Positions 1-836 of a stretch of DNA of 64,000 nt are shown one piece after another (positions within the stretch are counted from its first letter, which is position 1; every line of letters begins with the position of its first letter). The notes under the pieces were generated by a model. The model did not search any database. It was not told the DNA's origin and worked only from the letters and a program-made list of their open reading frames with translations. This DNA comes from Spirochaetaceae bacterium (GTDB lineage: Bacteria; Spirochaetota; Spirochaetia; Treponematales; Treponemataceae). The translations under genes were made by a program, and so were the position numbers. The DNA lies in contig JAGAAX010000010.1 in the NCBI GenBank assembly GCA_017614995.1, forward strand, positions 1-64,000, given 5' to 3'.

Positions 1-497
1 CACATATCCTTTCTTGTAAACTGTGTAAAACCGGCATGTTCAAAAATTGCATGCAGACGGTTTATTTCTCTTGTCCTCAGTGATTTGAGCGAACGGTATT
101 CGCTCAGGAGTTTCCGTCTTTCCCATTCTTCATCGCTTGGAGGAGTAACTACAGGCATTTCGTCTTCTTCATGGCTTCTGATATACTTTGCAAGCTTCAT
201 GGAATCCTCTTTGTCTGTTTTTCTCGTACTCATGAAGATTATGGCAAGTCTTCCCGGATTCAGGATGATTACCCGGCAGCCGACTTTTTCTCTCAGAATC
301 CTTTCAATTCTGAAGGCCAGATTACATGATTCCATTGCAACTACATCATCTTTGTTTAATTTTATGCACAGTTTATCAAGTCCTGAAAAATCTGTTTTTC
401 CTCCAGTTCTGATGATTTCGTTGCCTTTAGTGATAAGGCACATCTCATAAGTCCTTTTCCCCAAATCCAAGCCGACTGCGTTTCCTACCACTTCCAT
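1..497 (-). CDS. IS110-family transposase, N-terminal part (runs off the window)
   Basis: Read on the minus strand, an uninterrupted frame starts at the ATG at 497-495 and continues to the window edge (165 codons visible). It begins with a short beta strand carrying GLDLGK, followed by AMESC near residue 57 and TDKEDSMKLA near residue 95. This Asp/Glu/Asp arrangement is that of the RuvC-like DEDD domain of IS110-family transposases, which use no classical DDE chemistry. The serine-containing C-terminal domain lies outside the window. The upstream end of the element, with a structured non-coding stretch, is at about 500-730. Family assignment is firm; completeness and activity cannot be judged from half a gene. 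Confidence 0.85.
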   Translation of the reverse strand, partial: MEVVGNAVGLDLGKRTYEMCLITKGNEIIRTGGKTDFSGLDKLCIKLNKDDVVAMESCNLAFRIERILREKVGCRVIILNPGRLAIIFMSTRKTDKEDSMKLAKYIRSHEEDEMPVVTPPSDEEWERRKLLSEYRSLKSLRTREINRLHAIFEHAGFTQFTRKDM

Positions 498-519
498 AAG
501 TGTCCCCCTTTAATATAAA

Positions 520-715
520 ATGAGGACTGGAGAGCGATCCGGGTGCGTTGAACACCGTTCTCCTATTCGCGGTACTGGGGTATCGGCTCCAGGCCGCTCC
601 TTGTTATACGGTGGCCGGCTTTGACAAAAACTAAGGGTCGAGCTTTTTAATCTCACTAACTCCCGCTGCCTTCCACCGGCTCTCCAAGTCCGTCAACTTA
701 GAGTACAACTTTTCT
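520..715 (-). ncRNA. Candidate IS110 bridge RNA (seekRNA) in the transposase 5' non-coding end
   Basis: The roughly 200 bases upstream of the transposase start carry no open frame but fold well. GGAGAGC at 529-535 pairs with GCTCTCC at 679-685, and CCGG at 539-542 pairs with CCGG at 676-679, giving a closing stem of about 10 bp around a 150-nt domain. Smaller hairpins lie inside it (542-556, 553-572, 574-592). IS110-group elements are known to encode a bridge RNA of about 180 nt in the non-coding end upstream of the transposase, on the same strand, which pairs with both donor and target DNA. Position, size and strand fit. The exact ends and guide loops are inferred, not demonstrated. Confidence 0.55.
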
Positions 716-737
716 TCGGATTATTTAATCGTAACAA

Positions 738-756
738 CTAAGGGCAGAGCCCTTAG
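738..756. repeat. Perfect palindrome next to the IS110 end
   Basis: CTAAGGG, a 5-base loop and CCCTTAG form a perfect 7-bp hairpin. One arm plus loop resembles a segment inside the candidate bridge RNA (626-643), so this may be the insertion target or the element terminus. Confidence 0.5.
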
Positions 757-783
757 GCAGTGCCGGAAAAGGAAGGGGTTTAA

Positions 784-829
784 GGGGAAGGGAAAACCTC
801 GCCTCGGAAGAAGGGGTTTTCCTGTCCCC
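784..829 (-). terminator. Hairpin downstream of the acyl-CoA ligase gene
   Basis: Arms at 784-798 and 815-829 pair over 15 positions with two mismatches across a 16-base loop, starting 7 nt past the fadD stop codon. There is no clean U-run, so termination is only likely. Confidence 0.4.
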
Positions 830-836
830 TTACAGC

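What the first reader, a model, noticed from the sequence alone, without database searches (positions are those of the whole stretch)
520..715. Candidate bridge RNA of a treponemal IS110 element
Seen: a gene-free, foldable stretch of about 160-200 nt on the transposase strand, closed by a long-range stem (529-542 with 676-685), directly upstream of an IS110-type transposase. Known: IS110-group elements encode a bridge RNA there that pairs with donor and target DNA and makes them programmable recombinases. Inferred: this element has one. A spirochaetal example could have unusual guide loops.
Basis: partly seen in the sequence, partly recalled or inferred. Interest (0 to 1): 0.72.

Follow-up and report, generated by a model that had tools for sequence, protein, structure and literature searches.

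The report
Spirochaete IS110 bridge RNA, reversed guides
The stretch just upstream of this jumping gene encodes a guide RNA that matches both the place the element jumps to and the element's own ends, and its guide segments run in the opposite order to the best-studied example, which shows that this family of programmable recombinases is built in more ways than the two described.

Summary
Window 524-721 (minus strand) is the bridge RNA of an IS110-family element. The contig starts inside the transposase gene; copies place the left end at 738/739. A covariance model built without this element or its close relatives finds one hit in the 64 kb, here (546-705 minus, E 1.6e-29). In 24 related RNAs, 27 of 31 consensus pairs show compensatory change.

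The target guides match insertion sites: the 3' guide equals the left flank (0 of 20,000 permutations as good) and the 5' guide is the reverse complement of the right flank (0 of 20,000). Donor guides match the element's own ends; joined ends form a TTGACA-17-TACGAT promoter.

It is not a copy of IS621. The guides run in the reverse (IS1111-type) order and most relatives have IS1111-like subterminal repeats, yet the RNA lies upstream of the transposase, as in IS110. The transposase clade, which includes Leptospira ISLin1, lies outside both groups.

Expression and activity are untested. In passing: a sister IS110 clade inserted between Shine-Dalgarno and start codon.

The parts
1..497 (-). IS110-family transposase, first 165 residues (RuvC-like DEDD domain); gene cut by the contig start
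   Evidence: translation; Pfam PF01548 E 2.4e-13; D11, E56, D95, D98 invariant with IS621, IS4321 and ISLin1
524..721 (-). bridge RNA (5' end inferred from the junction promoter, 3' end from the closing stem)
   Evidence: held-out covariance model hits 546-705 minus, 115.9 bits, E 1.6e-29, only hit in 64 kb; 27 of 31 pairs with compensatory change
738..739 (-). AG at the left junction: likely core; A constant at both junctions, the G fixed only on the left side
   Evidence: all 11 left ends share AG-TTGTTACG; right ends share CATAGGA followed by G, A or T
728..733 (-). -10 half (TACGAT) of the circle-junction promoter; the -35 TTGACA lies in the right end, spacing 17
   Evidence: 17-bp spacing in most relatives with both ends
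682..703 (-). 5' stem-loop, CTCTAAGT (703-696) / GACTTGGAG (690-682), loop with conserved GACG
   Evidence: helix 1: 97.2% of cells paired, 8 of 9 pairs with double-sided change; 0/20,000 permutations
679..691 (-). 5' strand of the closing stem (GGACTTGGAGAGC); overlaps the 3' strand of the 5' stem-loop
524..535 (-). 3' strand of the closing stem (GCTCTCCAGTCC), just upstream of the transposase ribosome-binding site
657..666 (-). target loop, 5' guide GCGGGAGTTA; reverse complement of right target AACTCCC
   Evidence: own right flank C36 AAACTCCC; family test 0/20,000
631..638 (-). target loop, 3' guide ACCCTTAG; same sense as left target GCCCTTAG
   Evidence: left flank of this copy, 7-nt identity; family test 0/20,000
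601..606 (-). donor loop, 5' guide TAACAA; reverse complement of left-end start TTGTTA
   Evidence: covaries with left ends, 0/20,000
560..568 (-). donor loop, 3' guide GAATAGGAG; matches right-end terminus CATAGGAG
   Evidence: invariant ATAGGAG in all 24 RNAs; right ends
504..510 (-). transposase ribosome-binding site AAGGGGG
738..832 (-). left half of the dispersed REP-like repeat in which this copy sits
   Evidence: same repeat uninterrupted (GCCCTTAGGAATCCCG) at other loci of the genome

Best explanation
Window 524-721 (minus) encodes the bridge RNA of an active or recently active IS110-family element. The element excises as a circle (inferred). The joined right and left ends form a TTGACA-17-TACGAT promoter (shown in sequence), which transcribes first the RNA, then the transposase gene (inferred). 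The RNA folds into a 5' stem-loop, a target loop and a donor loop (shown by covariation). [quoted passage not shown] in the donor loop the 3' guide matches the right end and the 5' guide the left end (matches shown; pairing inferred). The DEDD recombinase then joins the circle to a REP-like repeat at an AG core (inferred from IS621). Read on the other strand this is the IS621 geometry with a CT core: the transcription unit is flipped relative to the core. RNA upstream, IS1111-type guide order and subterminal repeats together make an architecture between IS110 and IS1111.
For: Held-out model E 1.6e-29, sole hit in 64 kb. Consensus of 24 RNAs: 93.5% of cells paired vs 74.1% shuffled, 0/500. Guide-target tests: 6.25 vs 3.74 nt mean longest run (left, n=24) and 6.21 vs 3.20 (right, n=19), 0/20,000 each; IS621-type order gives no signal (3.77 vs 3.77; 2.56 vs 2.63). 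Donor 5' guide covaries with left end, 0/20,000. Controls: IS621 5' guide = left flank, same sense; ISPa62 (RNA downstream) 5' guide = reverse complement of right flank, 3' guide = left flank. Subterminal repeats of 7-15 bp in most relatives, covarying between ends, 0/20,000. Transposase family and catalytic residues. Clade separate from IS621 and IS4321.
Against: No RNA-seq, binding or transposition data. The window's transposase is cut by the contig end and no complete copy is assembled in this genome. Folding energy is not unusual (z -0.94). Some relatives match weakly on one side (L028, L072 and L108 right; L029, L073, L107, L113 and L124 left). Permutations ignore relatedness between elements. 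This element's own subterminal repeat is degenerate (5 bp).
Confidence: 0.93

Rival explanations
1. The stretch is only a structured leader of the transposase mRNA: the 3' segment folds onto the ribosome-binding site or onto the 5' hairpin and controls translation, with no guide role.
For: Closing stem and 5' stem-loop are mutually exclusive and both covary; best folds of the two states differ by 0.3 kcal/mol on average and by at most 5 in 20 of 24 RNAs; the 3' strand of the closing stem is adjacent to the RBS.
Against: Target and donor matches covary with flanks and ends, which a mere leader would not do. RBS pairing does not covary (matched -8.4, mismatched -8.7 kcal/mol).
Confidence: 0.03
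2. Bridge RNA of ordinary IS621 design, with the 5' guide reading the left target.
For: RNA upstream of the transposase, 5' stem-loop then target loop then donor loop, as in IS621 (PMC11208160, PMC11208158).
Against: No signal for that order in 26 and 18 elements, strong signal for the reverse; IS621 handled the same way gives its published order.
Confidence: 0.02
3. A real bridge RNA, but the copies in this genome are relics that no longer move.
For: Contigs break in every copy, so no intact copy is seen; guide and target differ by one base in some copies.
Against: Right ends are 97-100% identical among copies and left ends nearly so over the element; two guide variants match variants of the repeat; intact 362-aa genes in close relatives.
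Confidence: 0.1

Closest known systems
ISLin1 (Leptospira interrogans), IS110 family
   Same: Transposase 38.5% identical and in the same clade; homologous RNA upstream; same guide order; right end CATAGGAG
   Different: Different target guides; no RNA found described for it in the library searched; junction spacing is not 17
IS621 bridge RNA (IS110 group), PMC11208160 and PMC11208158
   Same: DEDD recombinase; RNA upstream; 5' stem-loop, target loop, donor loop in that order; bipartite guides; junction promoter; AG core is CT on the other strand
   Different: Guide order reversed relative to the transposase; covarying closing stem that competes with the 5' stem-loop; subterminal repeats in relatives; transposase in another clade; the IS621 RNA is not hit by the family model
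IS1111-type elements and their seekRNA (ISEc11, ISKpn4, ISPa11; ISPa62 checked here), PMC11187229
   Same: Guide order (top-strand complement 5' of bottom-strand match); subterminal inverted repeats in relatives; REP-like target as for ISPa11
   Different: RNA upstream rather than downstream; transposase outside the IS4321/ISPa62 branch

Membership tests
IS110-family bridge RNA (broad sense) | Encoded in a non-coding end next to a DEDD recombinase with a C-terminal Tnp domain | tested here: met
   C-terminal part found on contig C36 and in relatives
IS110-family bridge RNA (broad sense) | Two structured loops, each with two guides matching target or donor | tested here: met
   the 3' donor guide is invariant, so it matches but cannot covary
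IS110-family bridge RNA (broad sense) | Promoter formed at the joined right and left ends | tested here: met
   TTGACA-17-TACGAT in sequence; activity not tested
IS110-family bridge RNA (broad sense) | RNA is transcribed, binds the recombinase and directs recombination | not testable with these tools
   Needs experiment
IS110 group (IS621 type) | RNA upstream of the transposase | tested here: met
IS110 group (IS621 type) | 5' guide pairs with the bottom strand on the left side | tested here: not met
   No signal; the reverse order is supported
IS110 group (IS621 type) | Transposase in the IS621 clade | tested here: not met
   Separated by a 100/98 branch
IS1111 group | Guide order: top-strand complement before bottom-strand match | tested here: met
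IS1111 group | Subterminal inverted repeats of 7-17 bp | tested here: inconclusive
   7-15 bp in 13 of 19 relatives, covarying; degenerate in this element, 5 bp
IS1111 group | RNA downstream of the transposase | tested here: not met
   Upstream; PMC11187229 notes a few upstream exceptions
IS1111 group | Transposase in the IS1111 clade | tested here: not met
   IS4321/ISPa62 form their own 100/100 branch

The most novel reading that the evidence does not exclude
A third layout of IS110-family systems (RNA upstream, IS1111-type guide polarity and subterminal repeats) whose RNA is bistable: the 3' strand of the 5' hairpin is captured either by the 5' strand (guide state) or by a 3' segment beside the transposase ribosome-binding site (closed state), so that guide-RNA formation and transposase translation are linked.
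Probability: 0.3. Interest if true: 0.65.

Novelty: new variant of a known kind. Interest (0 to 1): 0.52.

Why it matters
Two published surveys describe IS110-type (RNA upstream, bottom-strand guide first) and IS1111-type (RNA downstream, top-strand guide first) elements and link RNA position to phylogeny. Here position and polarity come apart in a clade found from Treponema to Leptospira, which bears on how one layout turned into the other. It also adds a set of natural guide-target pairs, among them two guide variants within one genome, and an RNA model for annotating programmable recombinases that Rfam does not cover.

Tried and rejected
Rfam on the window: no hit, uninformative because IS621 gives no bridge RNA hit either. 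IS621-type guide order: no signal. Folding energy as evidence: z -0.94. RBS-sequestering hairpin as a conserved element: no covariation beyond the generic anti-Shine-Dalgarno match. A first hard-constraint folding script removed all pairs of the shared strand and was discarded, redone with soft constraints. Viral contigs: no relative; phage records gave only distant IS110 hits. Pairing left and right junctions of single copies in this genome: not possible, contigs break inside every copy. Two literature searches, for IS110 plus Shine-Dalgarno and for bridge RNA plus IS1111, showed no paper describing these layouts, but the library lacks most subscription journals and all preprints.

Full report
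Where it is. The window is the first 64 kb of contig C48 of a 3.05-Mb draft Treponema-like genome (nearest named relatives of the element are in Treponema records); the contig starts inside the transposase gene. The first 165 residues are present and belong to DEDD_Tnp_IS110, with the D, E, D, D residues shared with IS621, IS4321 and ISLin1. Full-length relatives (362 aa; relatives are 73-90% identical over this N-terminal part) carry the C-terminal Tnp domain as well and match the solved ISCro4 and IS621 recombinases.

Element ends. Eleven contig-end copies in this genome share one left end, starting AG-TTGTTACG at window 739-738. Nine right ends end in TTGACAAAAAACATAGGA. This copy and several others sit in a dispersed REP-like repeat, found uninterrupted elsewhere as GCCCTTAGGAATCCCG. 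The left junction always reads A-G-TTG; the right junction reads CATAGGA followed by G, A or T. The fixed A and free next base fit the IS621 core CT read on the other strand, where T is nearly invariant and C is looser (PMC11208158).

The RNA. About two dozen homologous leaders were found in Spirochaetota. Their consensus has a 5' stem-loop, a target loop with outer and inner stems, and a donor loop. Of 31 pairs, 27 have at least one double-sided change; 93.5% of cells pair against 74.1% after shuffling, and sliding the partner by one column drops this to about 50%. A model built without this element and its close relatives finds exactly one place in the window, 546-705 minus, E 1.6e-29, and hits 31 of 393 Spirochaetota genomes. 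It does not hit IS621 or IS4321.

Guides. For each element the 3' side of the target loop was compared with its left flank and the 5' side with the reverse complement of its right flank, against all wrong pairings. Left: mean longest identical run 6.25 nt matched, 3.74 mismatched, n=24. Right: 6.21 and 3.20, n=19. No permutation of 20,000 reached either value. The opposite, IS621-like assignment gave no difference. Examples: L055 GCGTTAG and CATTGCCT (right flank AGGCAATG); L104 GCGCGAG; L116 AGTCAAG and TAGCGTGCC; ISLin1 TTCATAG and CGCTCTC. In this genome two 5' guides (GCGGGAGTTAG, GCGGGGTTTCG) and two 3' guides (ACCCTTAG, ACCCTAAG) occur, and both kinds of repeat flank are seen. The donor loop's 3' guide ATAGGAG equals the right-end terminus in all; its 5' guide covaries with the left end (3.92 vs 3.15, 0 of 20,000; two left ends were mis-set by the script, which works against the result).

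Order of guides. IS621, run as a control, has left flank ATCAGGC-CT and 5' guide ATCGGGCCT in the same sense, as published (PMC11208160). ISPa62, with a 16-bp subterminal repeat and the RNA downstream, has 5' TAACAAT (reverse complement of the right flank) and 3' GGCTTGAA (left flank), the IS1111 order of PMC11187229. The window's family has that IS1111 order with the RNA upstream. Most relatives also have subterminal inverted repeats of 7-15 bp at near-constant depth that covary between the ends, although this element's own copy is degenerate. The transposase tree puts the clade, with ISLin1, outside both the IS621 branch and the IS4321/ISPa62 branch. PMC11187229 reports exceptions in RNA position, and the passages read do not give the guide order in them. 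So this is a variant layout, not a full member of either group.

Closing stem. It uses the 3' strand of the 5' stem-loop, which also covaries. The best folds with one or the other differ by 0.3 kcal/mol on average, and by at most 5 in 20 of 24 RNAs. A switch is therefore plausible but not shown. The idea that the 3' segment instead masks the ribosome-binding site has no covariation support.

Transcription. Joining right and left ends gives TTGACA-17-TACGAT here, and 17-bp spacing to TATGAT, CATGAT or TACGAT in most relatives; ISLin1 and L072 depart from it. The RNA 5' end near 721 is inferred from this.

Limits. Nothing here shows expression, binding or movement. Permutation tests do not correct for shared ancestry, though the guides differ among close relatives and follow their flanks. 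The literature search covers open papers only, so prior description of this layout elsewhere cannot be excluded.

Noticed in passing
L135-L152, L175-L177, L179, L181-L183 (genomes G067, G417, G434, G281, G046, G358): A different spirochaete IS110 clade (about 340-375 aa, MTVYIGVDLHKTQF type in most) sits, in all 25 copies read, between a Shine-Dalgarno GGAG and an ATG 5-9 nt downstream; in L177 and L144 the reading frame after the ATG is short. Its upstream RNA carries a 3' target guide matching the local Shine-Dalgarno flavour (TTAGGAG, AAAGGAG, ATGGGAG, CAAGGAG) and, in most, a 5' guide starting CAT (anti-start codon). The right end rebuilds GGAG before the gene. A bridge RNA apparently programmed to translation start sites.
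   Followed up: partly
L058:1490-2875: A member of that Shine-Dalgarno-targeting clade is inserted inside the bridge RNA region of a member of the window's family, cutting off its target loop.
   Followed up: partly
window 738-832; L012-L021: Dispersed REP-like repeat with a hairpin (CCTAAGGGCTCTGCCCTTAGG), about 10 uninterrupted copies found in this genome; target of several IS copies.
   Followed up: partly
G047:C1:1643681, G059:C1:663413, G067:C1:2318106: Full-length matches to the RNA model (about 70 bits) at places where no transposase of this clade was listed; possibly orphan or degenerate bridge RNAs.
   Followed up: no
L101 (ISEc45, E. coli plasmid): ISEc45 has a long downstream non-coding region with GAATAAGAG matching its right end CATAAGAG, like the 3' donor guide here; perhaps a relative of this layout with the RNA at the other end.
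   Followed up: no
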